Source: an uncultured Solobacterium sp.
GTDB taxonomy: Bacteria; Bacillota_I; Bacilli_A; Erysipelotrichales; Erysipelotrichaceae
DNA length: 38,563 nt
Direction of reading: 5' to 3'
NCBI GenBank assembly: GCA_900543035.1
Contig: UQPV01000023.1
Span: forward strand, 1-38,563
Numbering within the stretch: position 1 is the first letter of the stretch; every line of letters starts with the position of its first letter. This document shows positions 266-35,464 of this stretch, piece by piece. A model generated the notes under the pieces. That model was not told where the DNA came from and did not search any database. It saw only the letters and a list, made by a program, of their open reading frames with translations. Position numbers and translations under genes: made by a program.

Positions 266-306
266 CAGGGCCATGTCTGCATTTGCGCAGGCATGGCCCT
301 GTTTTT
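266..306 (+). terminator. Strong hairpin between tRNA-Trp and hypD
   Basis: Arms 266-280 and 287-301 form 15 continuous pairs when read as plus-strand RNA, including one U-G wobble (276/291) that would be an A-C mismatch in minus-strand RNA. The loop is 281-286 and T5 follows at 302-306. It is therefore oriented as a plus-strand terminator (second terminator after the tRNA), although it also abuts the 3' end of the convergent hypD, where its minus-strand form lacks a U tract. Confidence 0.7.
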
Positions 307-2681: not shown

Positions 2682-2686
2682 GAGGA

Positions 2687-3577
2687 TCAACCTCCTATTC
2701 TGATCTTTGGATAGCCTGCGCTGACAAACAGATCAAGCAGATGCTTCGTCTCTTCCTCATCCGGCGCATGAAACCCCGTCTCAACGACACGGCCCAGCTG
2801 CCGGTATTTGCCTGTGCCTGTGTCATGATAAGGCAATAAGTGTATTCGTGACACCTCGATCTGCTTATCCTGCAAGAAACGGATGATCTTCATCATCTCT
2901 GCCGTTGTGCCGTTTACCTCGCGGATGAGCGGTATGCGCAGGATGATCCGTGCGCCATCATGGCTCAGCCGCTCCAGATTATCCAAGATGAGCGCATTGT
3001 CTTTGCCGGTATATCGTGCATGCACGAGCGGATCTGCGCTCTTGATGTCATACAGAAAGCCATCCACATAAGGCAGGATCCGCTGAAAGCGCGCATAAGG
3101 CGCATGACCGCATGTGTCGATCATCACGCTGATGCCCGCATCATACAGCCGGCGCGTCAGCTCCTCCACCATATCCATGTCCGCGCACATGACCTCGCCG
3201 CCAGACAGCGTGACCCCGCCGCCGGACTCCTCGTAAAACGGCTGATCCTGACAAAGCGCGCCGAACAGCGCATCGAGCGTACGCTCCTGTCCAGCGATGC
3301 TGCGCAGATTCATCACACACGCGTCCACACAGCTTCCGCACGCCAGACAGCGCGCATGATCCGTATGCGGCCCGGCCGCATGCACCGGACAGACTGGCGT
3401 ACAGCGCTGACAGCCGCTGCACCTTTCCTCATCCTGCATCAGTTCCCGTTCGAACCGCTGGGTCTCTGGATTATGACACCAGGCACAAGACAGCGGACAG
3501 CCCTTGAAAAAGACCGTCGTCCGGATACCGTCCCCATCATAGATGCAATACTTCTGGATCCCGGTGATCAGCGGCAT
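2687..3577 (-). CDS. hypE: Hydroxyproline dehydratase activating enzyme (radical SAM)
   Basis: Installs the glycyl radical on HypD using S-adenosylmethionine and an iron-sulfur cluster. The protein has 296 residues. The radical SAM cysteines Cys27, Cys31 and Cys34 form a CxxxCxxC motif near the N-terminus. A ferredoxin-like insert follows with two four-cysteine sets (53, 56, 59, 63 and 77, 80, 83, 87), as is usual for activases of PFL-like dehydratases. GGG(E) appears as SGGEV near residue 105. The start at 3577 has a GGGGAG site upstream; the longer reading from 3601 would begin upstream of it. Its stop overlaps the hypD ribosome-binding region, so the two are translationally close. Substrate assignment comes from the neighbouring hypD. 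Confidence 0.9.
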   Translation of the reverse strand: MPLITGIQKYCIYDGDGIRTTVFFKGCPLSCAWCHNPETQRFERELMQDEERCSGCQRCTPVCPVHAAGPHTDHARCLACGSCVDACVMNLRSIAGQERTLDALFGALCQDQPFYEESGGGVTLSGGEVMCADMDMVEELTRRLYDAGISVMIDTCGHAPYARFQRILPYVDGFLYDIKSADPLVHARYTGKDNALILDNLERLSHDGARIILRIPLIREVNGTTAEMMKIIRFLQDKQIEVSRIHLLPYHDTGTGKYRQLGRVVETGFHAPDEEETKHLLDLFVSAGYPKIRIGG

Positions 3578-3607
3578 GTTCAGCTCCCCTTTCCATCTCA
3601 TGGTTCA

Positions 3608-3671: not shown

Positions 3672-5115
3672 AATTCAGATATCGATCGATCTGTTCGGCA
3701 CATGCCAGACCTTCATGGATGGCCCAAACGACCAGGGAAGGTCCTCGCTTGGCATCTCCGGCCGCAAACAATCCCTTCTCCGCATCGATCAAGTACGTGC
3801 CTGCTTCGGTCTTTGCGGTATGGCGCGGGCTCAGCGGCAAAGTGAAGGCATCGCTGACATACGTCTCCATGCCGGTAAAGCCGGCTGCGATGATGACCAG
3901 GTCAGCCTTGCGCTGGCGCGCGCTGCCTTCGACGACATGCATGCCCTGCGCATCAAAGCGCAGATCGACCGTTTCGACCGCATGCAATACGCCATCTTCG
4001 CGCAAAAAGCGCTGGATGGTCGTCTGATAAATGCGCGGATCGTGTCCGAAGCGAGCGATGCTCTCTTCCTGTCCGTAGTCCGTCTTGAGGACCCTCGGCC
4101 ATTGCGGCCAAGGGTTGCTTGCGGCGCGTTCCTTAGGCAGTGCCGGCATCATCTCCAGCTGTGTCACGCCCGCACAGCCCAGCCGGATGCATGAGCCGAC
4201 ACAGTCATTGCCGGTATCGCCGCCGCCTACGACGATGATATGACGGTCCTTGACGGCCGGGATAGCTTTGGCCGCCTGCGGATCATCCAAGCTTCTGGTC
4301 AGCGCGCTCAGGAAATCTACCGCAAAGACGATCTGTCCGCCATCGCGTCCCTCACCTTTCAGATCACGCGCTGCCCTGGCTCCGCAGCACAGCGCCACAG
4401 CATCATATTCTTCATAAAGCTGTGCCGGATCGATGTCCTTTCCGACATCGCAGCAAAGATGAAACACGATCCCCTCCTGCACCATCAGCGCGACGCGGCG
4501 TTCCACGATCTGCTTCTCCAGCTTCATGTTCGGGATGCCATACATGAGCAAGCCGCCGGCCCGATCATCGCGCTCATAGACATGCACCTCATGTCCCATG
4601 CGGTTCAATGCCCACGCTGCGGCCAGTCCGCTTGGGCCGCTGCCGACCACAGCTACTTTCTTGCCGCTGCGCACAGGGGTCGATGGCTTCATCCGGCCTT
4701 CTTTGAAGGCCTTTTCGATGATCGACAGCTCATTCTCCCGGATCGTGACCGGATCGCCGTTCATGCCGCAGATGCATGCCTTTTCGCAAAGCGCCGGGCA
4801 GACGCGGCCGGTAAATTCCGGAAACGGATTGGTCGCCAGCAGCCGCGCAAGCGCATCTTCGTCATTGCCATGATACAGCTCATCGTTCCATTCCGGGATG
4901 AGGTTGTGCAGCGGGCAGCCGCTCACCATGCCGCCCAGCACCATGGCTGACTGACACAGCGGCACCCCGCAGTTCATGCACCGCGCTGCCTGCTCACGCC
5001 GCTGCATCTCGCTGAGAGAGGCATGAAACTCATGGAAATCACGCAGCCGCTGCGCAGGGGACAGCGCCGGCTGCTCCTTTCGTTCATATATCATAAATCC
5101 ATCTGGTCTACCCAT
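3670..5115 (-). CDS. gltD: Glutamate synthase (NADPH) small subunit
   Basis: Passes electrons from NAD(P)H through FAD and iron-sulfur clusters to the large subunit, for glutamine + 2-oxoglutarate to two glutamate. The protein has 481 residues. N-terminal cluster cysteines are at 46, 49, 54, 67 and 106, 110, 114. The FAD-binding motif VAVVGSGPSG starts near residue 154, and a second dinucleotide motif IIVVGGGDTGND lies near 290. The start MGRPDGFM matches the usual GltD opening and has AGGAGG upstream. Only 12 bases separate it from the gltB stop, so the two subunits are made from one message. It is last in the operon and ends in a terminator. Confidence 0.95.
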   Translation of the reverse strand: MGRPDGFMIYERKEQPALSPAQRLRDFHEFHASLSEMQRREQAARCMNCGVPLCQSAMVLGGMVSGCPLHNLIPEWNDELYHGNDEDALARLLATNPFPEFTGRVCPALCEKACICGMNGDPVTIRENELSIIEKAFKEGRMKPSTPVRSGKKVAVVGSGPSGLAAAWALNRMGHEVHVYERDDRAGGLLMYGIPNMKLEKQIVERRVALMVQEGIVFHLCCDVGKDIDPAQLYEEYDAVALCCGARAARDLKGEGRDGGQIVFAVDFLSALTRSLDDPQAAKAIPAVKDRHIIVVGGGDTGNDCVGSCIRLGCAGVTQLEMMPALPKERAASNPWPQWPRVLKTDYGQEESIARFGHDPRIYQTTIQRFLREDGVLHAVETVDLRFDAQGMHVVEGSARQRKADLVIIAAGFTGMETYVSDAFTLPLSPRHTAKTEAGTYLIDAEKGLFAAGDAKRGPSLVVWAIHEGLACAEQIDRYLN

Positions 5116-5127
5116 GACTTCAGCCTC

Positions 5128-8100
5128 CTAACTCTCATACATCTGCGCGAACGCACGGCGCTGCGCTTCTTCTTCATCACAGCCATCGTGCATGAAACGC
5201 TCGATATTCTCCGTCATGACACGATAATCGTGCGGGATGATCTTGCGGAAAAGCGGCAGCTTTTCCATGAATTGTTCAAGCACCTCGCTGCCCTTTTCCG
5301 AATGAGTCACCCGGACATAGTCAGTGAGGATCTCCTTGAGTCGTGCGATATCGCGAGGATCATCGACATCTTCGATCTCCACCAGATCACGGTTGACCCG
5401 CAGATACAAGTCATGGTCCTCATCAAGGATATATGCGACACCGCCGCTCATGCCGGCCGCCACATTGCGCCCGGTGCGGCCCAGGATGACGACGCAGCCG
5501 CCGGTCATATATTCCAGCGCATGGTCGCCGCAACCCTCGACGACCGCAGTGGCGCCGGAGTTGCGCACGGCGAAACGCTCTCCGGCCTGGCCGCATACAT
5601 AAGCGGTGCCTGAGGTAGCGCCATACAGCGCGACATTGCCGATGATGATGTTATCCTGCGCGCGGAATGGCGCTTTCGGCGAAGGATGCACGACCAGACG
5701 GCCGCCGGAAAGCCCCTTGCCGAAGTAATCATTGGCATCGCCTTCCAGCTCCAGCGAGATGCCGGCCGGCACGAAGGCGCCGTAAGACTGGCCGCCGCTG
5801 CCGATGGAGCGGATGCGGCACGTATCATCCGGCAAAACGCCATAGCGCGAAGTCACATGCGAACCAAGCAGCGTGCCGAATGAACGGTCAGTGTTATGCA
5901 CCGTCACCTCACAGACAAAGGGCGCATCGTGCTTCATCGCTTCATCCAGGCCGGGGATCAGCTTGGCGGCATCGATCGTCTGCTCCAGATGGAAGTCATA
6001 GACATCGGCCGGATCAAAGCGCACTTTTCCGCCTTTGATCGGGGCAAGCAATTGCTGCAGCTGCAGATGATAAACATGCTCAGCGTGCTCGCTCACCTTG
6101 AGCAGGTCTTTGCGGCCGACCAGCTCATCGACCGTGCGCACGCCCAGCGATGCCATGATCTCCCGCAGTTCCTGAGCCACGAAGCGCATGAAGTGGATGA
6201 CATGTTCCGGCTTGCCTTGGAAGCGGCGGCGCAGGCATTCATTCTGCGTCGCAATGCCGACCGGACAAGTATCCAGGTTGCACACGCGCATCATCATGCA
6301 GCCCATGGCGACCAGCGGCCCTGTGGCAAAGCCGAACTCTTCAGCGCCCAGCATGGCGGCGATCGCAACATCGCGTCCGCTCATCAGCTTGCCGTCGGTC
6401 TCCAGGCGCACCCGGCTGCGCAGATGGTTTTCCACCAGTTCTTTCTGGGTTTGGGCCAGACCGATCTCCCATGGCATACCGGCATGATGGATGGAGCTCT
6501 GCGGCGCGGCGCCGGTACCGCCGTCATAGCCAGAGATCAGGATGACCTGCGCGCCGGCCTTGGCTACGCCGCAGGCCACGGTGCCCACGCCATGCTCCGC
6601 AACCAGCTTGACCGACATGCGCGCCTTGGGATTGGCATTTTTCAGGTCATAGATCAGCTGCGCCAGATCTTCGATCGAATAAATGTCATGATGGGGCGGC
6701 GGCGAGATCAGCGTCACGCCCGGCGTAGAGTGCCGCGTCTTGGCGATCCAGGGGTATACCTTGCGCCCCGGCAGATGACCGCCCTCGCCCGGCTTTGCGC
6801 CCTGCGCCATCTTGATCTGGATCTCATCGGCGCTGCATAAGTATTCGCTCGTCACGCCGAAGCGGCCGCTGGCCACCTGCTTGATGGCGCTGTTGCGCGC
6901 GGTGCCCAAACGCTGCGGGCGCTCCCCACCCTCACCACTGTTGGACTTGCCATGCAGCGCATTCATCGCCAGCGCCAGCGTCGTATGCGCCTCTTCACTG
7001 ATCGAGCCATAAGACATGGCGCCGGTCTTGAAGCGCGTCACGATCGCCTCTATCGGCTCCACTTCATCCAGCGGGATCGGCGTCACCTGAGAATGGTCAA
7101 ATTCCAGCGCGCTGCGCACGGTGAACATCGCATGCTCGCCATGCAGCATCGCCGTATATGTCTTGAATTTCTCATAGTCATTTTCCCGCACGGCTTCTTG
7201 CAGCGTCGTGATCGTCAGCGGATCGTACAGATGCCGCTCCTTGTCCTCACCGCTTCTCAGCCTGTGGAAGCCGGTCGTCACCAGCGCCGGCCCGCGTTTG
7301 GCCAGTGCCTGGGCATGATGCCAGCGGATGTCCGCATCGATCTTGGCAAAGGTCAGGCCGCCTAAAGAGGCCGGGGTATCGCCAAAGGAACGGTCCATGA
7401 CCTGTTGATCGATGCCGACCGCTTCAAAGATGCGGGCCGACTGATACGACTGGATCGTCGAGATGCCCATCTTGGCGGCGATCTTCACGATGCCATGCAA
7501 GATGGCGTCATTGTAATCACGCACGGCCGCATGCGGCTCTTTGTCCAGCACATCGCTGTTCACCATGTCACGGATGCACTCATGCGCCAGATAAGGATAG
7601 ATGGCAGATGCGCCAAAGCCCAGCAGCAGCGCGAACTGATGCACATCTCGGGGCTCGCCGCTCTCCAGCACGATGGAGACTGCGGTCTTGCGGCGGATAC
7701 GCACCAGATGCTGTGAAAGCGTGGCGACCGCGAGCAGCGAAGGGATGATCAGATGCTGCTCATCCGCGGCGCGATCGCTCACCAGCAGCAGATTGGCCTG
7801 TGCGTCACAAGCTGCATCACAGTCTTTCTCCAGCTGATCCAGCGCCTGTTCGATCGACATCGACGGATCATACAGCAGCGAGATCTCCGCGGTCTTGAAC
7901 TGCGGATGCACGAGCGTGCGCAGCTTATCCATATCGCGGCCATCCAGGATCGGGTTGTGGATCTCCAGCACCCGGCAGCCCTCTGCGCTTTCCGCGAGCA
8001 GATTGCCCTGCGCGCCCAGGTAAACAGCTGTGTCGGTCACGATCTTCTCACGCAGCGAATCGATCGGCGGATTGGTCACCTGTGCAAACAGCTGCTTGAA

Positions 8101-9612
8101 ATAATGAAACAGCAGCGGATGACAGGAAGAAAGCACCGCCAGCGGGATGTCCGTGCCCATGGACGCCGTCGGTTCGATGCCGTTCTTGGCCATCGGCAGG
8201 ATCTGATCGCGCACATCCTCATACGTATAGGCAAAGCTGCGGTACAGGAAATCGCGGTGTTCCGGGGCAAAGACATATGGTTTGCGCTCCTGGGCCGGCA
8301 GATCCTTCAGCTGGATGAGCGAACGGTCCAGCCATTCGCCATACGGATGCTCATCCGCCATGCTCAGCTTGCATTCTTCATCGCGGATGAGCCGATGCAC
8401 GGCGGTATCGATCACCAGCAGCTCGCCGGGACGAAGCCGGTCCTTGCGGATGATATGCTCTTCTGCGATCGGCAGCACACCGGTCTCGGAAGACAGGATG
8501 ACATGACCGTCGTCTGTCTGCCACCAGCGCAGCGGGCGCAGCCCGTTGCGGTCAAGCGCCGCGCCCAGCTTGACGCCGTCGCTGAACAGCACCGCGGCCG
8601 GGCCATCCCATGGCTCCATCAGCGTCGCGTGATAATGATAGAAGTCCTTCAGCTTGCGCGGCAGAGAGGCATGCTGCCACGGATGCGGGATGAGCGTGGC
8701 CACCGCCTTCTCGATCGGCATGCCGTTGAGATATAAAAATTCCAACGTATTGTCCAGCATGGCTGAATCCGAACCTTGGGCATTGACGATCGGCAACACA
8801 TCCTTATGATTCTCGCACAAGAACGGTGAATCCCAGACTGACTCACGCGCCTGCATGCGGCCGCGGTTGCCGCGGATCGTGTTGATCTCGCCATTGTGCG
8901 CGATCATGCGGTTAGGATGCGCCCGCTTCCAGCTGGGCTGTGTGTTCGTGGAAAAACGCGAATGCACCATGGCTAAGGCGCTCTCATAGCGCTCATCCTG
9001 CAGATCCGCGTAAAAAGCGCGCAATTGTCCGACCAGCAGCATCCCTTTATAGACGATGGTCGAGGCAGACATCGAGACGACATACGCATCCGGGCAGCGC
9101 CGTTCAAAGCGACGGCGCAGCAGATATAAGAAGCGCTCAAAGGCCAGTCCGCACGCGATGTGCGCGGGGCGCGTGATGAAGCATTGCCAGATGGCCGGCA
9201 TGCTGGCCAGGGCATGCGGATGCAGCAGTTCCTCATGCACCTTCACCTTACGCCAGAACGCCAGGCCTGCGCCGGCATCGCTGACGATCGTTTCCATCGC
9301 CTGGCGCTGCGCTTGCTCATCTTCGCTCAAAAACAGCATGGCGACGCCATAATCGCCGGCCGCAGGCAGTTCAGATCCTTCCTCATGCGCCACAGCGGCG
9401 AAGAAACGATGCGGGATCTGTGTCAAGATGCCCACACCGTCTCCGATCTCGCCGCTGGCGTCTTTGCCGGCGCGATGTTCCAGCTGTTCGACGATGGTCA
9501 GTGCCTGCTCCACCAGCACATGCTCACGCTCTCCGTCCATGCGGACGATCGCGCCGATGCCGCAGGCATCCTGCTCCATCTGTTCCTTTCGCTTATCTTC
9601 ATTTTGATTCAT
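5128..9612 (-). CDS. gltB: Glutamate synthase large subunit
   Basis: Hydrolyses glutamine and channels the ammonia to 2-oxoglutarate to make glutamate. The protein has 1494 residues, the full family length. The class II amidotransferase nucleophile is Cys17 in DACGIG, implying removal of a 16-residue leader peptide. The FMN/synthase domain follows from about residue 850. The 3Fe-4S cysteines sit around residue 1105 in a motif ending CNLDTCPVG. The C-terminal GXGXG beta-helix spans roughly 1240-1480. An AAAGGAG site precedes the ATG by eight bases. It lies 15 bases after asnB and 12 before gltD. The stop codon is TAG, in frame with gltD. Confidence 0.96.
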   Translation of the reverse strand: MNQNEDKRKEQMEQDACGIGAIVRMDGEREHVLVEQALTIVEQLEHRAGKDASGEIGDGVGILTQIPHRFFAAVAHEEGSELPAAGDYGVAMLFLSEDEQAQRQAMETIVSDAGAGLAFWRKVKVHEELLHPHALASMPAIWQCFITRPAHIACGLAFERFLYLLRRRFERRCPDAYVVSMSASTIVYKGMLLVGQLRAFYADLQDERYESALAMVHSRFSTNTQPSWKRAHPNRMIAHNGEINTIRGNRGRMQARESVWDSPFLCENHKDVLPIVNAQGSDSAMLDNTLEFLYLNGMPIEKAVATLIPHPWQHASLPRKLKDFYHYHATLMEPWDGPAAVLFSDGVKLGAALDRNGLRPLRWWQTDDGHVILSSETGVLPIAEEHIIRKDRLRPGELLVIDTAVHRLIRDEECKLSMADEHPYGEWLDRSLIQLKDLPAQERKPYVFAPEHRDFLYRSFAYTYEDVRDQILPMAKNGIEPTASMGTDIPLAVLSSCHPLLFHYFKQLFAQVTNPPIDSLREKIVTDTAVYLGAQGNLLAESAEGCRVLEIHNPILDGRDMDKLRTLVHPQFKTAEISLLYDPSMSIEQALDQLEKDCDAACDAQANLLLVSDRAADEQHLIIPSLLAVATLSQHLVRIRRKTAVSIVLESGEPRDVHQFALLLGFGASAIYPYLAHECIRDMVNSDVLDKEPHAAVRDYNDAILHGIVKIAAKMGISTIQSYQSARIFEAVGIDQQVMDRSFGDTPASLGGLTFAKIDADIRWHHAQALAKRGPALVTTGFHRLRSGEDKERHLYDPLTITTLQEAVRENDYEKFKTYTAMLHGEHAMFTVRSALEFDHSQVTPIPLDEVEPIEAIVTRFKTGAMSYGSISEEAHTTLALAMNALHGKSNSGEGGERPQRLGTARNSAIKQVASGRFGVTSEYLCSADEIQIKMAQGAKPGEGGHLPGRKVYPWIAKTRHSTPGVTLISPPPHHDIYSIEDLAQLIYDLKNANPKARMSVKLVAEHGVGTVACGVAKAGAQVILISGYDGGTGAAPQSSIHHAGMPWEIGLAQTQKELVENHLRSRVRLETDGKLMSGRDVAIAAMLGAEEFGFATGPLVAMGCMMMRVCNLDTCPVGIATQNECLRRRFQGKPEHVIHFMRFVAQELREIMASLGVRTVDELVGRKDLLKVSEHAEHVYHLQLQQLLAPIKGGKVRFDPADVYDFHLEQTIDAAKLIPGLDEAMKHDAPFVCEVTVHNTDRSFGTLLGSHVTSRYGVLPDDTCRIRSIGSGGQSYGAFVPAGISLELEGDANDYFGKGLSGGRLVVHPSPKAPFRAQDNIIIGNVALYGATSGTAYVCGQAGERFAVRNSGATAVVEGCGDHALEYMTGGCVVILGRTGRNVAAGMSGGVAYILDEDHDLYLRVNRDLVEIEDVDDPRDIARLKEILTDYVRVTHSEKGSEVLEQFMEKLPLFRKIIPHDYRVMTENIERFMHDGCDEEEAQRRAFAQMYES

Positions 9613-9627
9613 GATCTGAACTCCTTT

Positions 9628-11208
9628 CTAACAGCCGCTGCTGCCGTAATTGGACAGCACGCGGGCGCTCGGGTCATCGACATCACAGCCTTCCCAGCTG
9701 CGATTCGGCATCCAGAAATCACGCACCATCTGTGACTGTCCCGGATAAAATGACTCAAAGATCTCCCGGTATAACAGCGACTCTTTGGTAAATGGGGCCG
9801 CATGCGCATACCGGCGCCGTTTCGTCTCCAATTCCGCATCGCTGTACAGCGACTCGGCATATGCCTGCAGATCATCCCGCAGTGAATGGCCGACCGCATC
9901 GGAAAACGCGGCCTTCTCGCGCATCAGGATATCCTGCGGGAGATAATCGCCCGCAAACGCATGGCGCAGCAGATATTTGCCTTTGCCATAATGATTCATC
10001 TTCAGGTTTGGATCGATGTGCAGCACATAGTCCGCAAAAGCGAGGTCGCCGAAAGGAACGCGCGCCTCCATGGAGTGCACGCTGATGCAGCGGTCGGCCC
10101 GCAATACATCATACATATGCAGCTCCCGGATGCGCTTCTCGCTCTCTTCCTGAAACGCCTTTGCATCAGGCGCGAAGTCGGTGTATTTATAGCCGAACAG
10201 CTCATCGGAGATCTCTCCGGTCATCAGCACGCGGATATCCGTCGTCTCATGGATGGCCTTGCAGATGAGATACATGCCCATCGAGGCCCGGATGGTCGTG
10301 ATGTCATATGTGCCCAGAGCATAGATGACATCCTTCAGCGCATCGATCACTTCCTCGCGGGTCATGAGGATCTCGGTATGATCCGTATGCAGGTATTCCG
10401 CCACTTCCCGCGCATAGCGCAGATCGATCGCGTCTTTATCCATGCCGATCGCGAACGTGCGGATCGGCCGCTTCAGCATGCGCGCGCTGATGGCGCACAC
10501 CAGCGAGGAATCCAGTCCGCCGCTGAGCAGAAAGCCAAGGGGCGCATCGGCGTCCAGACGCTTGCGCACCCCTTCGCATAACAGTTCGCGGATCTTCGTA
10601 CAGGCGGTTTCCAGATCATCACTGCTATAGCTGCTCACCTTGCTCAAGTCGCGGTAACAGTGAAAGCTGCCGTCTTTATAGTAATGTCCGGGAGGGAAAG
10701 GCATGATCTTCTCACAGATGCCGACGAGGTTCTTCGGCTCGCTCGCCATCACCATGACGCCATCTTCATCCAGGCCGTAATACAGCGGACGAATGCCGAT
10801 GGGATCACGGGCAGCGATAAAAGAACCGCTTTGCGCATCATAGAGGATGAGGGCGTATTCCGCGTCAAGCATGGCGAACATATCGGTCCCATAGCGCTCG
10901 TACAACGGCAGAAGGATCTCACAGTCGCTGTCGCTGACAAACTGAATGCCGCTTGCTTCCAGCTGTTCGCGCAGCGAACGGAACCCATAGATCTCCCCGT
11001 TGCAGACGAGCATGCTGCCATTGCGGACAAACGGCTGCATGCCGCTGTCGCTGAGCCCCATGATGGCGAGCCGGTGAAAGCCGAGCAGGCCGTTTCCGGT
11101 ATCCAGGATGCGCGTGTCATCCGGTCCGCGCGAGATGGTCGCGGAAAACCCTTGCTCAAAGCGCGCGCGGTCGGCCCCAGCGCTGAAATATCCCATGATC
11201 GAACACAT
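9628..11208 (-). CDS. asnB: Asparagine synthetase (glutamine-hydrolysing)
   Basis: Makes asparagine from aspartate, ATP and glutamine. The protein has 526 residues. I chose the ATG at 11208 because it places the class II amidotransferase nucleophile at Cys2 (MCSIMGYF), as needed after removal of Met1, and because the GGGGG site is seven bases upstream; the upstream ATG at 11214 would be almost on top of that site. The ATP pyrophosphatase P-loop SGGLDSS is at 229-235. It sits in the glnN-asnB-gltB-gltD operon, 30 bases after glnN. The stop is TAG. Confidence 0.94.
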   Translation of the reverse strand: MCSIMGYFSAGADRARFEQGFSATISRGPDDTRILDTGNGLLGFHRLAIMGLSDSGMQPFVRNGSMLVCNGEIYGFRSLREQLEASGIQFVSDSDCEILLPLYERYGTDMFAMLDAEYALILYDAQSGSFIAARDPIGIRPLYYGLDEDGVMVMASEPKNLVGICEKIMPFPPGHYYKDGSFHCYRDLSKVSSYSSDDLETACTKIRELLCEGVRKRLDADAPLGFLLSGGLDSSLVCAISARMLKRPIRTFAIGMDKDAIDLRYAREVAEYLHTDHTEILMTREEVIDALKDVIYALGTYDITTIRASMGMYLICKAIHETTDIRVLMTGEISDELFGYKYTDFAPDAKAFQEESEKRIRELHMYDVLRADRCISVHSMEARVPFGDLAFADYVLHIDPNLKMNHYGKGKYLLRHAFAGDYLPQDILMREKAAFSDAVGHSLRDDLQAYAESLYSDAELETKRRRYAHAAPFTKESLLYREIFESFYPGQSQMVRDFWMPNRSWEGCDVDDPSARVLSNYGSSGC

Positions 11209-11238
11209 TGCCATTCCCCCTTATCTGATCATCGATGA

Positions 11239-13329
11239 TTATTGAATGCCAAACAGCAGCTTGCCATAGGTCGGGAACGGCCAGTACTGCGGCGAGGTCA
11301 TCGTCTCCAGCGCATCGCAGGCCGTGCGGACCTCATCCATCAGCGGCAGCACCTCATCGCGGTAACAGAATGCCGCGCTCTCCACATCCAGCTTCTCTGC
11401 CTTCTGTACCACACGCTTCAGCTTTTCACTGGCTGCGAATGCCGCTTCCTGCAAGTCTGAAGCCAGCGCGGCCGACTTGCTCTCATAGCAGCTCTTCACA
11501 TCGAGCAGCTGCTGCTTCATCGCCGCAGTATCCAGCCACTCATGCACCTGCGCAGTGACGGCCGGCAAGATCTGCTTCTTCACCATGTCCAGCATCGTCA
11601 GCGCCTCGATATGCAGCGTCTTGCCATACTCCTCCATGAAGATCTCATAACGGGAACGCACTTCTTCTTCATCGAAGATCCGATGACGCTTGAACAGCTC
11701 GATGTTCTCCTTACGGATGAAATATGGCAGCGCGTCCGGTGTCGTGCGCAGGTTGAGCAGGCCGCGCTTTTCGGCCTCTTCGATCCAGGCATCGTCATAG
11801 CCATTGCCGTTGAAGATGATGCGCTTATGGCTGCGGATGGTATCCTGGATCAGCACATGCAATGCGCTGGGCAGATCCGGCGCCGCTTCCAGCACATCGG
11901 CGAACTGCTTCAGCTCATCAGCCACGACGGCGTTGAGCACGATGTTGCAGCCGGCGATCGATGCGCTGCTGCCCGGCATACGGAACTCAAACTTATTGCC
12001 AGTGAACGCAAAGGGCGAAGTGCGGTTGCGGTCGGTCGTGTCTTTCTGAAACTTCGGCAAGACATGTGCCCCGATCTTCATGACCTCTTTGGCCTTGCCA
12101 TCATACGGGCGGTCCTGCTCGATGGCCTCCAGGATCTCCGTGAGCTCATCGCCCAAGAACATGGAGATGATGGCCGGCGGCGCCTCATTGGCGCCCAGAC
12201 GATGATCGTTTCCAGCCGTTGCCACGCTGAGACGGAGCAGATCCTGATGCTCATCGACCGCCTTGATGACCGCACACAGGAACAATAAGAACTGCGCGTT
12301 CTCATGCGGCGTTTCTCCCGGCTCCAGCAAGTTCACACCAGTGTCTGTGGAAATGGACCAGTTGTTGTGTTTGCCGCTGCCGTTGATGCCTTCAAACGGT
12401 TTCTCATGCAGCAGCGCAACCATGTCATGCTTCTTGGCAATGCGCTGGATCAGCTCCATCATCAGCTGGTTGTGATCGGTGGCGATGTTGGTCGTCGTGA
12501 ACACCGGCGCCAGCTCATGCTGAGCCGGAGCGACCTCATTGTGCTCGGTCTTGGCGCTGACCCCCAGCTTCCACAGTTCTTCATTCAGCTCATTCATGAA
12601 CTCCTGCACACGGGTCTTGATGGTGCCGAAATAATGGTCTTCCATCTCCTGCCCTTTCGGAGAAGGCGCGCCAAACAGCGTGCGCCCGGTGTAGATCAGG
12701 TCTTTGCGCTGCTCATAATAGGTCTTGTCTACCAGGAAATACTCCTGCTCGCAGCCGACGGTCGTGCGCAAGGTATGCACATCTTCGTTGCCAAACAGTT
12801 TCAGGATGCGCAGGCCCTGGCGGTTGATGGCCTCCATGCTGCGCAGCAGCGGCGTCTTCTTGTCCAGCGCATGGCCGGAATAAGAACAGAATGCCGTCGG
12901 GATGCAGAGCACATTGTTCTTGATAAACGCATAAGAAGTCGGGTCCCAGGCCGTATAGCCGCGGGCCTCAAACGTCGCGCGCAGACCGCCATTCGGGAAA
13001 GAAGACGCGTCCGGTTCACCACGGACCAGTTCTTTGCCGGAAAACTCCATCATGACCTTGCCATGACCATCCGGTACGATGAAGCTGTCGTGTTTTTCTG
13101 CCGTTACGCCGGTCAACGGCTGGAACCAGTGCGTGAAGTGGGTCGCGCCTTTCTCCAGCGCCCACTCCTTCATCGCGTTGGCGACCGCATTGGCAATCTT
13201 GGGATTCAGGCTGCTGCCATCACGGATGGTCTTCTGCAGCTCTTTAAATGTGTCTTTGGCCAGACGCTCACGCATCTGCTCTTCGTCGAATACCATGGAT
13301 CCAAACAGTTCGCTAACTCGTGTCTTCAT
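11239..13329 (-). CDS. glnN: Glutamine synthetase type III
   Basis: Joins ammonia to glutamate with ATP to form glutamine. The protein has 696 residues, typical of the large type III class and far longer than type I. Diagnostic stretches include FPNGGLRATFEARGYTAWDP, NGSGKHNNWS, GNDHRLGANEAPPAI and NRTSPFAFTGNKFEFR, which carry the ATP- and glutamate-site residues of this class. The C-terminal helical part ends in SPQYWPFPTY. The start is the ATG at 13329 with AAGGAG at proper spacing; a GTG at 13338 would be too close to that site. It opens the operon with asnB and gltBD and follows a long structured leader with a terminator, so it is probably regulated by antitermination. Confidence 0.95.
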   Translation of the reverse strand: MKTRVSELFGSMVFDEEQMRERLAKDTFKELQKTIRDGSSLNPKIANAVANAMKEWALEKGATHFTHWFQPLTGVTAEKHDSFIVPDGHGKVMMEFSGKELVRGEPDASSFPNGGLRATFEARGYTAWDPTSYAFIKNNVLCIPTAFCSYSGHALDKKTPLLRSMEAINRQGLRILKLFGNEDVHTLRTTVGCEQEYFLVDKTYYEQRKDLIYTGRTLFGAPSPKGQEMEDHYFGTIKTRVQEFMNELNEELWKLGVSAKTEHNEVAPAQHELAPVFTTTNIATDHNQLMMELIQRIAKKHDMVALLHEKPFEGINGSGKHNNWSISTDTGVNLLEPGETPHENAQFLLFLCAVIKAVDEHQDLLRLSVATAGNDHRLGANEAPPAIISMFLGDELTEILEAIEQDRPYDGKAKEVMKIGAHVLPKFQKDTTDRNRTSPFAFTGNKFEFRMPGSSASIAGCNIVLNAVVADELKQFADVLEAAPDLPSALHVLIQDTIRSHKRIIFNGNGYDDAWIEEAEKRGLLNLRTTPDALPYFIRKENIELFKRHRIFDEEEVRSRYEIFMEEYGKTLHIEALTMLDMVKKQILPAVTAQVHEWLDTAAMKQQLLDVKSCYESKSAALASDLQEAAFAASEKLKRVVQKAEKLDVESAAFCYRDEVLPLMDEVRTACDALETMTSPQYWPFPTYGKLLFGIQ

Positions 13330-13352: not shown

Positions 13353-13408
13353 AAAAAAACGGCAGAGACGGACACGTACCCTAGAGTACACGACGCCTTT
13401 GCCGTTTT
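13353..13408 (-). terminator. Leader terminator (attenuator) of glnN
   Basis: On the minus strand AAAACGGCA (13408-13400) pairs with TGCCGTTTT (13364-13356), and the T run continues to 13353. Inner pairs (GGCG with CGTC, TGTAC with GTACG) can extend the stem. It stands between the promoter and the glnN start, so it must be bypassed for expression. Its 5' arm is shared with the ANTAR-type hairpin at 13390-13405. Confidence 0.82.
13390..13405 (-). promoter_or_regulatory. ANTAR-type hexaloop hairpin in the glnN leader
   Basis: In minus-strand RNA, ACGGC and GTCGT form five pairs (one G-U) around the six-base loop AAAGGC. Loop position 1 is A and position 4 is G, the two bases ANTAR domains are known to need. 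The 5' arm is the same ACGGC used by the terminator, so the two structures exclude each other. This matches the second hairpin (P2) of known ANTAR antiterminators. I did not find a canonical first hairpin. An ANTAR protein is encoded 3 kb away. Confidence 0.7.
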
Positions 13409-13477
13409 CATGTGTGCTGTGGAAGAAATCCCCTCACGCAGAGCGGAAGTGAACATCTCTCCCGTTTTATGCCTCGT

Positions 13478-13506
13478 ATTATGCACCCGTTTCTTTGGGT
13501 TGTCAA
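13478..13506 (-). promoter_or_regulatory. Promoter of the glnN operon
   Basis: On the minus strand TTGACA (13506-13501), 17 bases and CATAAT (13483-13478). Transcription would start near 13471, giving a leader of about 140 bases before the glnN ATG. Confidence 0.85.
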
Positions 13507-13517
13507 GCACTTCTTGT

Positions 13518-15014: not shown

Positions 15015-15043
15015 TTGACTTTTCGCTCATTTTCCGGTATAAA
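15015..15043 (+). promoter_or_regulatory. Promoter of glnA-ANTAR-pyrG
   Basis: TTGACT (15015-15020), 17 bases and TATAAA (15038-15043). Transcription would start near 15050, giving a leader of about 100 bases. Confidence 0.82.
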
Positions 15044-15066
15044 TATGTCGTTAATCAAGATTGCGA

Positions 15067-15084
15067 ATGAGCAATGGCGTTCAT
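15067..15084 (+). promoter_or_regulatory. ANTAR-type hexaloop hairpin in the glnA leader
   Basis: ATGAGC (15067-15072) and GTTCAT (15079-15084) form six pairs (one G-U) around loop AATGGC. Loop A1 (15073) and G4 (15076) fit the ANTAR target rule. The loop differs from the glnN one (AAAGGC) at only one position. Its 5' arm can instead pair with 15123-15128 as the base of the leader terminator, so the two folds compete. No canonical upstream partner hairpin was found. Confidence 0.68.
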
Positions 15085-15150: not shown

Positions 15151-16359
15151 ATGCATTATTCTTATGAAGATGTGGAAACGTTCATCCAAGAAGAAAATGT
15201 CAAATTTATCCGTCTGGCATTCTTCGATGTCTTCGGCGTCCAAAAAAACATCTCGATCCTGCCGCAAGAGCTGAAACGCGCTTTCAGCGAAGGCATCTCT
15301 TTCGACGCTTCCGCGATCGCCGGATTCGGCGATACCGCCAAAAGCGATCTGTTTCTGAAACCGGACCCTTCCACCCTGGTCGTCCTGCCCTGGCGGCCGA
15401 TGGACGGACGGGTCGTGCGCATGTACTGCGATATCATGTATCCAGACGGCACACAGTTTGAAAAAGACTGCCGGCTCATCCTGAAGCAGGCGGTCGATGA
15501 AGCGGCAGCCGAAGGCATCCACGTCGATTTTGGCGCCGAGGTCGAATTTTACCTGTTTCAGCAAGACGAGCACGGCATACCCACCGATATCCCCTTCGAC
15601 CGCGCCGGTTATATGGATGTAGCGCCCAAGGACCGCGGCGAGGATGTGCGCCGTGAGATCTGCTTCACCCTCATCGACATGGGCATCCAGCCCGAGGCCA
15701 GCCATCATGAGGAAGGGCCAGGGCAAAATGAGATCGATTTCCGCTACAGCGACGCATTGAGCGCGGCCGACCAGACCGCCACGTTCAAATGGGTCGTAGA
15801 AATGGTCGCCATGGGCAACGGCCTGCATGCCGATTTCTCCCCGAAACCGCTGAGCGCGGAAGCCGGCAGCGGCATGCACATCAACATGTCCGTGACCAGC
15901 GACGACGGACGTGATCTGCAGGACGCGTTCATGGCCGGCATCCTGGCGCACATCCGCGAGATCACCCTCTTCCTCAACCCGCATACCGATAGTTATCAGC
16001 GGCTGGGCGAGATGAAGGCGCCGCGCTATATCAGCTGGTCAAAGGAAAACCGTTCCCAGCTCATCCGCATCCCCGCGATGAAGAATGGCCGCAGGCGCAT
16101 CGAGCTGCGCTCTCCGGACCCTTGCGCCAACCCTTACTTGTGCTATGCGCTGCTCATCCATGCCGGTCTCGACGGCATCCGCAGCCAGATGGAGCCGCCT
16201 GCGCCGCTCGATGTCAATCTGTTTCAAGCAGAAGCATCGCTCACCCGCCAGCTGGACAAGCTGCCGCAGTCTCATCAGGAAGCCTGGGAAATGGCCGAGC
16301 GCAGTGAATTTGTGAAACGCCTGCTTCCTGGATCCATCATCAAGGCTTACCGATACTAA
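15151..16359 (+). CDS. glnA: Glutamine synthetase, type I family, short form
   Basis: Predicted to make glutamine from glutamate, ammonia and ATP. The protein has 402 residues, about 40-70 shorter than usual type I enzymes. Recognisable parts are the N-terminal beta-grasp FIRLAFFDVFGVQKNISI, the metal-binding GAEVEFYLF, NEIDFRYSDAL, the ATP-site GSGMHINMS and the substrate-site RIPAMKNGRRRIELRSPDP. There is no obvious adenylylation loop. A strong AAAGGAG site lies seven bases before the ATG. It is 19 bases upstream of the ANTAR gene. Because of the short length and the second synthetase next door, a related ligase activity (for example gamma-glutamyl transfer to an amine) cannot be excluded, but the active-site motifs look complete. 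Confidence 0.85.
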   Translation: MHYSYEDVETFIQEENVKFIRLAFFDVFGVQKNISILPQELKRAFSEGISFDASAIAGFGDTAKSDLFLKPDPSTLVVLPWRPMDGRVVRMYCDIMYPDGTQFEKDCRLILKQAVDEAAAEGIHVDFGAEVEFYLFQQDEHGIPTDIPFDRAGYMDVAPKDRGEDVRREICFTLIDMGIQPEASHHEEGPGQNEIDFRYSDALSAADQTATFKWVVEMVAMGNGLHADFSPKPLSAEAGSGMHINMSVTSDDGRDLQDAFMAGILAHIREITLFLNPHTDSYQRLGEMKAPRYISWSKENRSQLIRIPAMKNGRRRIELRSPDPCANPYLCYALLIHAGLDGIRSQMEPPAPLDVNLFQAEASLTRQLDKLPQSHQEAWEMAERSEFVKRLLPGSIIKAYRY

Positions 16360-16378: not shown

Positions 16379-16969
16379 ATGAGCAGCCAGCCATGCATTC
16401 TGGTTCTCTCAAACAGTGAGATACCCGCCGGGATCCTGCGGGAAATGCTTCCCAGGGATTCCTTTCCGTCTGTCCTCTTCGCCGCTTCGATCACAGCGGC
16501 CAGACGCACCCTGCTGGCACGCGAAGTGGATCTGCTCGTCATCGATGCCCCGCTGCAAAAAGAAAGCGCGCTGAGATTCGCGCAGGAAATCGCACAGCGC
16601 AGCACGCCTGGGCTTCTTTTGCTCATGGGCGCGGAGCTTTATCACCAGCAGGCTGCCCGGCTGGAGGAAGCAGGCATTCCGGTCCTGCCCAAGCCCATTT
16701 CCAAGGCTATGCTGCAGCATAGCGTACGTCTGTTATGCACCGCGCAGAAGCGGCTTTACATCGCGCAGCGCGAAACGATGGACCTGCAGCAGAAGATGCA
16801 GGAAGTGCGCATCATCGCCAGCGCCAAACGCCTCATGCAGGAACAGCTCGGCTGGGAGGAAGAGCACGCACACCGCTATCTGCAGAAGCGGGCCATGGAC
16901 CAATGCTGCACCAAATACGAAGCAGCACGCTATATCATACAGAAACTGAAAAACGGAGGAAGGTTATGA
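16379..16969 (+). CDS. ANTAR-domain RNA-binding antitermination regulator
   Basis: Predicted to bind hexaloop hairpins in nascent leaders and prevent termination. The protein has 196 residues. Residues 1-120 resemble a response-regulator receiver: Asp56 sits at the phospho-acceptor place and Lys105 in LPKP at the conserved lysine place. The acidic pair normally after the first strand is replaced by Ser-Asn-Ser-Glu, so phosphorylation is doubtful. A helical linker (121-138) leads to the ANTAR three-helix domain (about 138-190), with [20 protein letters not shown] and the typical alternating Ala/aromatic pattern. AAAGGAGGGG precedes the ATG. It overlaps pyrG by ATGA. Position between glnA and pyrG, plus matching hairpins before glnA and glnN, argue for control of glutamine synthesis. 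Confidence 0.88.
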
Positions 16970-20371: not shown

Positions 20372-23300
20372 TTACCTTGTGCTTCGCTTCCTGATGCAGA
20401 GAAGCACAGCCGCGCAAGTCAGGAGGAGTCCGATCCATCCCAGATGATCTGCGCTTGCGGCAGTATCACTTTCTGCACTGAGCGAAGATTCCGCTTGTTC
20501 ATCTCTTGCTGGATCCGTCAGCGGCTTTCCGCTTTCTGTATCTGACTGCGGTCTTGCTTCCAGGCGAGAGACAGCACGGTTCAACGATGCCATAATGGTA
20601 TCCACGTCTTCCTGCGTCACTTCCGAATCATTCAGCACTTCCTGTGCTTGATCCAGCAGGCTGCGAACTCGTCTTGCACTGTCGGCCGTATACAGATCCA
20701 GGTTGAGCAAGGCGGCATTGTGTACAGCTGCGGTAAGCGCCTCCTTATCCGCAAGTGTTCTCGCGCACAGGCGTGCTTCACGCAAGCTCTTTGTCGCTTC
20801 ATCGAGCTCTGCCTGTGTCGTGGCGTTCTCCAGCGCTGCTTTCGCTGCATCCAGCTTCTCCTGCAGTCCTTCCACCGTGGAAGGCACATAATTACCGATG
20901 TTTTCAGCCATTGCGCTGACAAGCTCGATCTCATATTCAAGCGCACGTGTATCCAGTTTTCTGCTGTCCAGTCCGGCAATCGCATTGCTCAGATTCGTGA
21001 TGGCCTCGCTCACTTCTGCAGTCGTCGCATCATCATTGTCTGCCACGGCTTGTGCAGATTCGATCGCTGCCTGCAGTGCTTCCAGGCTTTCTGCCGTGTA
21101 GTCACCATCGAGGTAACCGTTTGCGGCTTCGATCAATGCGTTCAGCTCTGCCTTGGAGACGATCTCCCACAGCTCCTGCGCCGCCTTGGTCATCGCTCTG
21201 TTCGCTGCCTTCAGCTCATCTGCGGTTGCTTCAGGGTTATCAACCAGTATCTGTGCGGCTTGGACAGCGTCTCTCAGCGCCTGCACCTTGCCTGGACGGA
21301 GTCCTTCTACATCGTTCAGGATATGTTCATTGATGAAGGTGATCGCAGCTTCCAGATCTTGGCGCAGGGCCGCTTCGCTCGCGCCGGTATTCAGTGCCTG
21401 CATTGCTTCGCTCAAGTCAAGCAGGGCAATGACGACTTCCGTGGAAGTCGGGGCTTCCTTAGCCAATACGGCCTGTGCAGCGTCGATCGCTGCGTTCAGC
21501 GCTTCATCATCAGAATCCAGCGCAATGGCCTTGTCGATCATGTCCTTCAGTGCCTGGATCGCCGCATCGCTCGATGCAGGATCATCTGCGCGCTCCAGTT
21601 CATCGATGGCCTGCTGCAGCTGTGCTGCGGCCTGATTGACCATCTCCTGATCTGCCTGTTCATTCGCATAAACAGCATTGGCTGCGTCCAATGCGCCTTG
21701 CATGTGATTCCAGCTTTCTGCCGTATATTCCTCTTCATTCAATGCTTCTGCCTGTTCGATCAATGCATTCAGCGCACTCTTGTCTGCGCCTGATGAAGGC
21801 ATGTTCAGCGTATAGGTGAACTCCTGTCCGCGCACATCGATGACGACCACATGATCGCCAGCGCTGACCATCTCTGATGCGGATCTTACGTTGCCCTGTT
21901 CATCGCGGATCTCTACCGTACAATTGCCGCGCGGCTGCAACATGGCTGTCAGTTCGGCCACGCTGACTTCCTGTTCATCCAGCTGCACGCTCGCGCTGCT
22001 CTCTTCAACGATGCTTCCTTTCAGCCGCCATCCATAAACCTCCAGTTCCTTCACGACAGCCGGGATATATGCCTGCGTCAGGCTAGTGCCTGTTACGATG
22101 ATCGTCATATCCTTGATCTGAGCGCTCTTGCCATCTACCCAATGCTCCGTATGATCCTGCGTGGTGTTGTCACGCGCATCCAGATCATAACCGCCGGCGA
22201 TGCCGACCGGGTTCAGCGCATGCAGCTCATATTGATAAGAACGCTTGGACGCTGAATTGAACCAGTCGATGCTGACGCCGGTGAGGTAATACCAGTCATC
22301 GGTATCGGCCTCGTCTGTCAGCTGGATCTGCACGGAAGCTGGATAGTAGCTCTGTGTGCGGGCTGCATTCATAACGCCGCTCCATCTCGTATCGACGCTG
22401 CCATCATTGATGTTTTCTGCCACATGGCCCATGGCGGCATCTTCATTGGCGACGATCTGTCCGTCTACGGTCTCTGATGTATTGAGTGCATGCACGCGCA
22501 TTCCCTGGGAAATCGGTGTTTCCGCATTATCCGCAAAGGACAGCGCATACACATCTTCACTTTCTCCATGCAGCGCGCTGATGATCAGCTGTGCGCCTTC
22601 ATACAGCACATCTTCTTCCTCAAGCGTTTTTCCATCAGCCTGGATCTTCACGCTGCCGTTGCCATCCAGCTGCAGCGCATCGAGGAACTCAGAAACGCGC
22701 ATGCCCAGCGGGATATCGGAGATCACGTGCTCTTCCACATCGACATCGAAATCATCAGATGCGATATGATAACCTTCTACGGCCATCTCCCATACGCTTG
22801 GCGCATGATAAGAGGTATTCGTGCTGCGGTCTTCTACGACAAGCAGGATATAGCGTCCCTGTGCCTGCAGATCGCGCTGTACACGGCTCTCCTGAGCAGT
22901 GAAGTTATCGCTGCCATCCACGATCAGATACTGTTCATCGATGTTCTCCTGCTGCAGGACATCAAGATCGTCTGCCGCATAGATGCGATAAGAATAATAG
23001 CGGTTGGCATTGTCTTCATTGAATGGCGTGCTGCCATTGTAGAAAGTCAGATCGAAATGATTCAGCTGATAGCTGTCCCCCAGATCGATGCATACCTTTG
23101 CTGGGAAGATGGCGTACATATGCGAAGCATCCATGGCGCCGCTCCAGCGCGTCGTCATCTTACCGTCATTGATATAATAAGCCGGCGCATAGTTTTTGCC
23201 ATGATCGGCCTCGGTCTCCCCTTCCAGCACATCTTCATTTGGCTTGGTGACCCCATCTTTGTCAACAGCGTCAAATGCGGTCACTTCACGTCCCTGAGAG

Positions 23301-26300: not shown

Positions 26301-26719
26301 TCGCTTTCATTGATGTTCACTTCTTCATGCGCGCTTTCCTCATAAAGCGGCGCGATGACCTGCACGCTGAAGCTCTCCTGTTCGACCTTGCCATTCATCA
26401 TGGCCGTCACCGTGACTGTACAGGTTCCTTCGCTGATGCCCTGGATCTGCAAGGCATTGCCCTCAAGGCTGATCCTCGCGATGGACTCATCATCACAGTG
26501 CGCTGAAAGCTCCACGCCCTCCTCTGGATAAGTGCTGATGAAGACATACGTCTCCTCTCCGCGCTCCAGATTCTTCACATCGCGCAGAGAGCTGATCGAA
26601 ATGTCGCTGACGATCTGCGTCTCGCTCGCAGCATGCACTTGAGCCGGCAGCGCAACACTGCTCAGCGCCAGCATGCATGCCATGGATGCCTGAACCAGCA
26701 TCCGCAATCGCTTCTTCAC
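20372..26719 (-). pseudogene. Giant secreted GH2 beta-galactosidase with FIVAR repeats, interrupted by one in-frame TAG
   Basis: Predicted extracellular galactosidase acting on host or diet glycans. The reading frame of 2115 codons is intact except for TAG at codon 412 (25486-25484). Order: signal peptide (1-31, cut after VHA); Ig-like domain; GH2 sugar-binding and Ig domains (to about 410); GH2 barrel with acid/base Glu540 in GMHNE and nucleophile Glu645 in MSEYG; about three F5/8-type carbohydrate-binding modules with linker repeats; six FIVAR helical repeats; C-terminal hydrophobic segment and basic tail KRSTR without a visible LPXTG. The GTG at 26719 is preferred: AAGGGAGGG lies seven bases upstream. 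The TAG falls just before KKIGFR, where Glu or Gln would be expected, so it looks like a recent point mutation. Without read-through the product is a 411-residue secreted fragment without active site; no ribosome site precedes the second half. Confidence 0.85.
20555..21788 (-). repeat. Six FIVAR-type helical repeats in the GH2 protein
   Basis: Six diverged units of about 65-70 residues, each with the pattern L..LI..A..L....YT..S...L..A...A..V...... followed by a second helix (for example YTAESWNHMQGALDAANAVY and YTAESLEALQAAIESAQAVA). FIVAR domains occur in cell-surface proteins and often bind polymers or act as stalks. Confidence 0.8.
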
Positions 26720-26765
26720 TAGATTTCCCTCCCTTTGCTGAATCAACAGCATATCCTATATCTTT

Positions 26766-33988: not shown

Positions 33989-34018
33989 AACTCCATTCCT
34001 CCCGTATAAGCAGCAATA

Positions 34019-34044: not shown

Positions 34045-34048
34045 GCGC

Positions 34049-34225: not shown

Positions 34226-34238
34226 AATAGATTCCTCC

Positions 34239-35453: not shown

Positions 35454-35464
35454 ACGCCGACCTC

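What the first reader, a model, noticed from the sequence alone, without database searches (positions are those of the whole stretch)
13353..13483. glnN leader: ANTAR hexaloop hairpin sharing an arm with a terminator
Seen: loop AAAGGC (A1, G4) on a five-pair stem, whose 5' arm ACGGC is also the 5' arm of a nine-pair terminator just before glnN. Known: ANTAR proteins recognise paired hexaloop hairpins with A1 and G4 and prevent such terminators from forming. Inferred: the ANTAR protein encoded at 16379-16969 controls glnN-asnB-gltBD by antitermination. The canonical first hairpin is not visible, so either a degenerate one is used or the target is a single-hairpin variant.
Basis: partly seen in the sequence, partly recalled or inferred. 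Interest (0 to 1): 0.75.

Follow-up and report, generated by a model that had tools for sequence, protein, structure and literature searches.

The report
Single-hairpin switch for nitrogen assimilation genes
The start of the glutamine synthetase transcript carries a small conserved RNA hairpin, apparently held by a neighbouring RNA-binding protein to let the gene be read, and many gut bacteria seem to use one such hairpin where the known version of this switch uses two.

Summary
ACGGC[AAAGGC]GTCGT lies at 13405-13390 (-), overlapping the glnN terminator. A second copy, ATGAGC[AATGGC]GTTCAT, precedes glnA-ANTAR at 15067-15084 (+).

Of 80 orthologous glnN leaders, 63 carry an AANGGN hexaloop. 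The stem covaries and overlaps a terminator. In 56 of 58 leaders with a promoter the loop starts 41-48 nt after the -35, at the RNA's 5' end. That leaves no room for the first hairpin of the canonical dual ANTAR motif; none is found beyond chance.

The element tracks ANTAR genes: 49 of 93 ANTAR-positive genomes of one order against 4 of 53 negative ones. It precedes glnN, amtB, asnB, asnA, gltB and glnA.

Best reading: a single-hexaloop variant of ANTAR antitermination controlling nitrogen assimilation. The window's glnN copy is atypical, about 70 nt into the RNA. Binding and antitermination are inferred, not shown.

Extra: the GSI-like protein encoded beside the ANTAR gene has lost its catalytic flap Glu here and in most relatives; it may be a sensor.

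The parts
13478..13506 (-). glnN promoter, TTGACA (13506-13501), 17-nt spacer, CATAAT (13483-13478)
   Evidence: 11 of 12 consensus letters
13456..13468 (-). AAAACGGGAGAGA, possible remnant of a lost first hairpin unit; can pair with the terminator 3' arm when the hexaloop is forced
   Evidence: alignment with L001-L004; R1 top hit in the window 13434-13507 at 19.0 bits, E 0.018; forced fold
13390..13405 (-). hexaloop hairpin ACGGC[AAAGGC]GTCGT of the glnN leader
   Evidence: R1, not trained on the window, hits 13389-13405 (16.8 bits, E 0.047)
13353..13409 (-). intrinsic terminator sharing the ACGGC arm with the hairpin, followed by a T run
11239..13329 (-). glnN, type III glutamine synthetase
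   Evidence: PF12437, PF18318, PF00120; ATG at 13329
9628..11214 (-). asnB, asparagine synthase, 24 nt after glnN
5128..9612 (-). gltB, glutamate synthase large subunit
   Evidence: NF008730, 1573.6 bits
3670..5115 (-). gltD, glutamate synthase small subunit
   Evidence: TIGR01317, 577.6 bits
15015..15043 (+). glnA promoter, TTGACT, 17 nt, TATAAA
   Evidence: read from the sequence; not listed by the scan, which requires a final T
15067..15084 (+). hexaloop hairpin ATGAGC[AATGGC]GTTCAT of the glnA leader
   Evidence: like copies before glnA of L001, L003, L004
15077..15132 (+). glnA terminator using the hairpin's 3' arm (GCGTTCATC with GATGGACGC)
   Evidence: (z -5.2, 0 of 200 shuffles as stable)
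15151..16359 (+). glnA, GSI-like protein of 402 aa with Lys in place of the catalytic flap Glu
   Evidence: PF00120, PF03951
16379..16969 (+). ANTAR protein: receiver-like domain plus ANTAR domain; presumed antiterminator
   Evidence: PF03861 43.5 bits; PF00072 29.5 bits, just under its cut-off of 30.2

Best explanation
The glnN leader and the divergent glnA leader are transcription attenuators controlled by the ANTAR protein encoded downstream of glnA. With ample nitrogen the leader folds into the intrinsic terminator. Under nitrogen limitation the ANTAR protein binds the one AANGGN hexaloop hairpin as it leaves RNA polymerase, keeps the shared arm out of the terminator, and lets glnN-asnB-gltBD, and glnA plus its own gene, be transcribed. 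It is a single-hexaloop variant of ANTAR antitermination. In most relatives with a recognisable promoter the hairpin sits at the very 5' end of the transcript, so no P1 hairpin can precede it; the window's glnN copy lies about 70 nt in, but has no P1 either. Shown from sequence: the hairpins, covariation, terminator overlap, gene context, co-occurrence with ANTAR. Inferred: transcription starts (from promoter consensus), protein binding, antitermination, and the nitrogen signal.
For: Conserved in 63 of 80 orthologous leaders. Covariation: 93.5% of cells paired, 42 two-sided changes against 11.6 in shuffles, 0 of 500. Loop-agnostic A1 60/65, G4 62/65. Loop 41-48 nt from the -35 in 56 of 58 leaders; no second hexaloop beyond chance at stems of 3 or more pairs. 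Terminator overlap in 75 of 84 units or 69 of 85 by a stricter rule. ANTAR gene in 60 of 63 genomes with the motif, 10 of 17 without. R1 in 49 of 93 ANTAR-positive and 4 of 53 ANTAR-negative genomes of one order. 25 of 28 top loci precede glnN, amtB, asnB, asnA or glnA. ANTAR domain keeps Lys149, Glu160 and Met172 of EutV in 52 of 52 relatives including the window's. ANTAR proteins (NitR) are reported to induce GS/GOGAT genes on nitrogen limitation in C. saccharobutylicum (PMC6316151 passage).
Against: The window's own glnN hairpin is not 5'-terminal (77 nt from -10 end to loop), so for this gene the no-room argument does not apply. Forcing the hexaloop leaves an alternative pairing of the terminator 3' arm with an upstream segment. 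For EutV, P1 is required in vivo and a 20-nt longer linker abolishes antitermination. A sister group shows two hexaloops in at least two leaders, so two may be ancestral. 44 of 93 ANTAR-positive genomes have no R1 hit and 4 ANTAR-negative ones do. The window's ANTAR differs from EutV at Tyr164 (His), Arg168 (Gln), Arg175 (Cys) and Arg177 (Thr). Co-occurrence tests are not corrected for kinship, and many genomes are MAGs.
Confidence: 0.8

Rival explanations
1. A canonical dual-hexaloop ANTAR target whose first hairpin is degenerate or non-canonical, so that no new architecture is needed.
For: EutV needs both hairpins in vivo. Sister-group leaders L303 and L300 show two. The window glnN leader has about 65 nt of RNA before the hairpin, room enough.
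Against: In 56 of 58 leaders with a promoter the hairpin starts within about 8 nt of the predicted start. Second A..G.. hexaloops at linkers of 3-15 nt: 5 upstream and 4 downstream of 85 units against 3.75 and 4.7 in shuffles (stems of 3 or more pairs); for 4 or more pairs 4 upstream against 0.65, but these four overlap promoter sequence.
Confidence: 0.1
2. The inverted repeat is a DNA operator just downstream of the start site, bound by an unknown regulator, or is read by another RNA-binding protein.
For: Fixed distance to the promoter would suit an operator; no binding has been shown.
Against: The second pair is G-U in 42 of 62 distinct units, which a DNA palindrome would not keep. The loop is asymmetric and conserved. 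Terminator overlap and ANTAR co-occurrence fit RNA and ANTAR.
Confidence: 0.06
3. A riboswitch or a constitutive attenuator without any dedicated protein.
For: A terminator stands before a nitrogen gene, and three motif genomes show no ANTAR gene (L005, L057, L068).
Against: No Rfam family reaches its threshold in the window or in 12 orthologous loci. The conserved part is a hairpin of about 16-22 nt, small for a ligand pocket. It co-occurs with ANTAR genes.
Confidence: 0.04

Closest known systems
ANTAR dual-hexaloop antiterminators: EutV/eutP, NasR/nasF, AmiR/amiE (PMC3369931, PMC8934654)
   Same: Short stem, six-base loop with A1 and G4, overlap with an intrinsic terminator, ANTAR protein in the genome, nitrogen-related genes.
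   Different: One hairpin instead of two 5-12 nt apart, mostly at the 5' end of the RNA; loop AANGGN; a related ANTAR subtype with His at the G4-stacking position (51 of 52).
NitR of Clostridium saccharobutylicum (Stutz 2007, not read; described in PMC6316151)
   Same: ANTAR protein acting on GS/GOGAT genes under nitrogen limitation; as recalled, nitR lies beside glnA.
   Different: Here the main target is GSIII (glnN) with asnB and gltBD, and the linked GlnA lacks the catalytic flap Glu. I could not compare the NitR leader RNA.
NasS-NasT and the B. subtilis GS-GlnR/TnrA circuits
   Same: A ligand-binding partner controls a regulator: NasS-NasT by complex dissociation (PMC3795266, abstract start), GS-GlnR by binding of feedback-inhibited GS (PMC9249791 passages).
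   Different: Here the putative partner is a degenerate GSI-like protein and the regulator an ANTAR protein; their interaction is only a hypothesis.

Membership tests
ANTAR dual-hexaloop target RNA (definition of PMC3369931) | six-base loop with A at position 1 and G at position 4 | tested here: met
   AAAGGC and AATGGC in the window; A1 60/65 and G4 62/65 in orthologs, loop-agnostic
ANTAR dual-hexaloop target RNA (definition of PMC3369931) | stem of at least three pairs | tested here: met
   five and six pairs in the window; covariation in orthologs
ANTAR dual-hexaloop target RNA (definition of PMC3369931) | two such hairpins joined by a short linker (5-12 nt in the E. faecalis eut leaders) | tested here: not met
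   no second A..G.. hexaloop with 4 or more pairs in either window leader; none beyond chance in 85 units at stems of 3 or more pairs; no room in 56 of 58 leaders
ANTAR dual-hexaloop target RNA (definition of PMC3369931) | hairpin overlaps an intrinsic terminator | tested here: met
   both window leaders; 75 of 84 units, 69 of 85 by a stricter rule
ANTAR dual-hexaloop target RNA (definition of PMC3369931) | bound by an ANTAR protein, causing read-through | not testable with these tools
   needs binding and transcription assays
ANTAR protein family (PF03861) | ANTAR domain over the curated cut-off | tested here: met
   43.5 bits against 27.3
ANTAR protein family (PF03861) | EutV residues that contact G4 and the loop (Arg142, Lys149, Glu160, Tyr164, Met172) | tested here: inconclusive
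   window keeps Lys149, Glu160, Met172; has Val at 142 and His at 164
active type I glutamine synthetase (window GlnA) | catalytic Glu of the Glu flap (Glu304 in B. subtilis) | tested here: not met
   Lys in the window; kept in 7 of 43 ANTAR-linked proteins of this group, window included
active type I glutamine synthetase (window GlnA) | metal-binding Glu residues, active-site Arg and His residues | tested here: met
   of 12 core positions the window has lost only the flap Glu

The most novel reading that the evidence does not exclude
A two-part nitrogen sensor in gut Bacillota and Treponema: a pseudo-glutamine synthetase (a GSI-like protein that lost its catalytic flap Glu and only senses) controls the ANTAR protein encoded by the next gene, which reads one 5'-terminal hexaloop to switch on the real synthetase (GSIII), GOGAT, asparagine synthetases and ammonium transport. 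Both the single-hairpin read-out and the enzyme turned sensor would be new.
Probability: 0.4. Interest if true: 0.85.

Novelty: new variant of a known kind. Interest (0 to 1): 0.7.

Why it matters
The current model holds that ANTAR antitermination needs two hexaloops visited in turn (PMC8934654). A natural class with one hexaloop at the transcript's 5' end would show that one can be enough, and would give a minimal system for studying the mechanism. It would also explain how core nitrogen assimilation is controlled in many gut and rumen bacteria, and it supplies a search model for such regulons. The degenerate GSI-like protein encoded beside the ANTAR gene makes the question of what these ANTAR proteins sense directly testable.

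Tried and rejected
Rejected: a canonical P1; a known Rfam family (nothing over threshold but a tRNA; one search lists SR6_antitoxin 18.5 bits, snR50 16.9, U6atac 11.2 and RT-6 10.7, all far below their thresholds); a DNA operator (conserved G-U pair). Led nowhere: naming the window's organism (no genome held; its ANTAR protein has full-length relatives at 89-99% identity, then 62%, none named); the NitR leader in the literature.

Corrected on the way: the Fisher test printed used a wrong hand count (8 of 16); the right counts are 60 of 63 against 10 of 17, and notebook entry 2 still carries the old number. The H269 column was one residue off and was redone. The script stopped at early T runs for some units; one search is a stricter recount.

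Circularity: model R2 was trained with both window hairpins, so its window hits are by construction; R1 was not trained on the window. Of the 20 ANTAR-positive genomes, 14 had supplied a training leader; of the 146, three (G018, G039, G061). One search used stricter filters that lose weak matches.

Full report
What is in the window. On the - strand glnN (GSIII, 13329-11239) is followed by asnB, gltB and gltD with gaps of 12-24 nt. Divergently, glnA (GSI-like, 15151-16359) is followed after 19 nt by the ANTAR gene (16379-16969). The glnN leader has a near-consensus promoter, a hexaloop hairpin at 13405-13390 and an overlapping terminator ending at 13353. The glnA leader has the same parts: promoter 15015-15043, hairpin ATGAGC[AATGGC]GTTCAT at 15067-15084, and a terminator that uses the hairpin's 3' arm.

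Conservation. I fetched 80 loci with glnN orthologs (61-74% identity; one search kept the best 80 of 276) and took 260 nt before each start codon. 64 of 80 carry an AANGGN hexaloop on at least four pairs; I discount L047, whose match lies at the Shine-Dalgarno site, leaving 63. Across 62 distinct units 93.5% of cells pair, with 42 two-sided changes against 11.6 in shuffles (0 of 500). That control ignores relatedness, and these rows had been chosen for at least four pairs. A set chosen by promoter distance and loop letters only, not by pairing, shows the same trend (pair 4: 69 of 85 paired, 42.7 expected). Without assuming the loop, hairpins near the predicted start in 67 promoter-bearing leaders are more often hexaloops (65, in 59 leaders) than any other loop length, with A1 in 60, A2 in 63, G4 in 62, G5 in 60 and position 3 free. 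Treponema copies before gltB and asnB read AAAGAG or AAAGAC: A1 and G4 stay, G5 does not.

One hairpin, not two. With the best promoter taken from anywhere in the leader, the first loop starts 41-48 nt after the -35 in 56 of 58 orthologous leaders (exceptions L047 and L049). The stem begins 5-14 nt after the -10, roughly at +1 to +8 of the predicted RNA. A canonical P1 needs about 12 nt plus a linker of 5 or more, so it cannot fit. At linkers of 3-15 nt, second A..G.. hexaloops with at least three pairs are as rare as in shuffles (5 upstream and 4 downstream of 85 units, 3.75 and 4.7 expected). With at least four pairs there are 4 upstream against 0.65, but all four overlap promoter sequence that should not be transcribed. 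A similar scan of a sister group flags a clear pair in L303, along with pairs that look like chance, and L300 shows one by eye, so real pairs are visible when present. Twelve leaders hold two complete units 61-115 nt apart (L001-L004, L008, L048, L051, L052, L056, L058-L060); pairs whose second member is the Shine-Dalgarno site are not counted. The window glnN hairpin lies at the distance of such a second unit (106 nt from the -35; 107-111 in L001-L004), and an aligned remnant suggests a lost first one.

Shared arm. In 75 of 84 units with a T run, at least four nt of the hairpin pair into the terminator in the minimum-energy fold; a stricter rule gives 69 of 85. In the window the shared part is the 5' arm for glnN and the 3' arm for glnA. 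Forcing the hexaloop costs 12.7 kcal/mol in glnA but only 1.5 in glnN, where the upstream remnant can pair with the terminator's 3' arm instead. I cannot say whether that pairing matters.

Link to ANTAR. An ANTAR gene is found in 60 of 63 genomes with the motif and 10 of 17 without (p 5e-4). In 26 genomes the promoter-plus-hairpin model R1 hit 20 of 20 with ANTAR and 0 of 6 without, but 14 of the 20 had supplied training leaders and three hits are weak (E 0.03-0.04). In an evenly drawn sample of 146 genomes of the order of Mordavella massiliensis (Lachnospirales, recalled), 93 have ANTAR; R1 hits 49 of these and 4 of the other 53 (p 1.2e-8), with three training genomes in the sample. The 28 new top loci precede glnN (14), amtB (8), asnB, asnA and glnA (one each), an ABC substrate-binding protein, a class I amidotransferase, and ffh, the last probably chance. 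Pfam confirmed amtB for L186 and L163 and asnA for L192; the other amtB calls are by reading. In the selected set R1 also precedes amtB (L161, L163), gltB (L160), asnB (L166), amidotransferase genes distantly like the gltB domain (L164, L167, L168) and a class III aminotransferase (L170); L162, L165 and L169 look like chance. A direct look before genes in fetched loci found such hexaloops before 10 of 25 glnA, 12 of 19 gltB, 9 of 37 asnB (several at the Shine-Dalgarno site) and 2 of 40 ANTAR starts (some loci repeat a genome). In 38 of 60 ANTAR loci a GSI-like gene lies directly upstream, in 8 glnN is divergent, and 14 are neither or too short.

The protein. In EutV the flipped-out G4 is held by Tyr164, Arg142, Lys149 and Glu160, with Met172 in the loop (PMC8934654 section 21). 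In 52 related ANTAR proteins including the window's, Lys149, Glu160 and Met172 are invariant, Tyr164 is His in 51, Arg168 is Glu in 44 (Gln in the window), and Asp54 is Asn in 28 (Asp in the window). In the order-wide sample, genomes whose ANTAR has His164 with Glu or Gly168 have an R1 hit in 36 of 44, those with His164 and another residue at 168 in 12 of 44, those without His164 in 1 of 5. Target architecture and protein subtype thus go together.

A possible sensor. The window GlnA aligns with solved GSI enzymes but has Lys where they have the Glu of the Glu flap, in a flap one residue shorter. That Glu is the catalytic base, Glu304 of B. subtilis (passages of PMC7948447 and PMC9249791). It is kept in 7 of 43 ANTAR-linked proteins of this group; in the sister group it is kept in 10 of 11, but an active-site Arg (Arg316 of B. 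subtilis by my alignment) in only 3 of 11. At least one of 12 core residues is lost in 37 of 43 and 9 of 11. All 20 genomes checked also have one or two GSIII genes; in 18 every GSI-type gene lies beside an ANTAR gene, while G032 and G035 have another (one search read). I suggest, without direct evidence, that the GSI-like protein senses nitrogen status for the ANTAR protein. Against it: GmaS lacks the same Glu and is an active ligase (PMC7948447), and six of 43 keep all 12 residues.

Known and new. ANTAR control of GS/GOGAT genes is known (NitR, PMC6316151), and dual-hexaloop elements were predicted before glutamate, glutamine and ammonium-transport genes (PMC3369931 section 10). PMC8934654 reduced the binding motif to one hexaloop but holds that antitermination needs both; NasR binds a single hairpin weakly, about 12 uM (PMC7496416 passage). 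I found no paper on a single, 5'-terminal hexaloop class or a degenerate GS partner in the searches. That library holds only open-licence papers, and the supplements of PMC3369931 were not available, so some of these leaders may be listed there. Papers were seen as listings, abstracts or passages, except section 21 of PMC8934654 and sections 7 and 10 of PMC3369931, read in full. Stutz 2007 was seen only as a cited reference.

Noticed in passing
window 15151-16359 (+): The GSI-like protein beside the ANTAR gene has lost the catalytic Glu of its flap, as have most ANTAR-linked relatives; possible pseudoenzyme sensor.
   Followed up: partly
window 15060-15075 (+): A competing perfect hairpin ATTGC[GAATGA]GCAAT overlaps the glnA hexaloop hairpin and appears in the minimum-energy fold of one leader segment.
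   Followed up: no
L303 about 5640-5800 (+); L300 glnN leader (-): Sister-group glnN leaders with two hexaloops (TCGGGC[AAAGGA]GTCCGG then AGAAC[AATGGC]GTTCT in L303), suggesting the dual form may be older.
   Followed up: partly
L057 about 4750-4830 (-): A GTGAGC[AAAGGC]GTTCAC hexaloop with its own terminator points away from glnN, seen by eye, 27 leader sequence; gene not identified, and no ANTAR gene was found in that genome.
   Followed up: no
window 20372-26752 (-): Two adjacent ORFs in different frames read like pieces of one large secreted glycoside hydrolase with repeats; judged from the ORF list only.
   Followed up: no
window 30132-38327 (-): A type I restriction-modification locus (M, S and R genes) with extra genes between and after, judged from the ORF list only.
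   Followed up: no
window 306-3601 (-): A glycyl-radical enzyme and its activating enzyme, judged from the ORF list only, lie downstream of gltD; whether they share its transcript is unknown.
   Followed up: no
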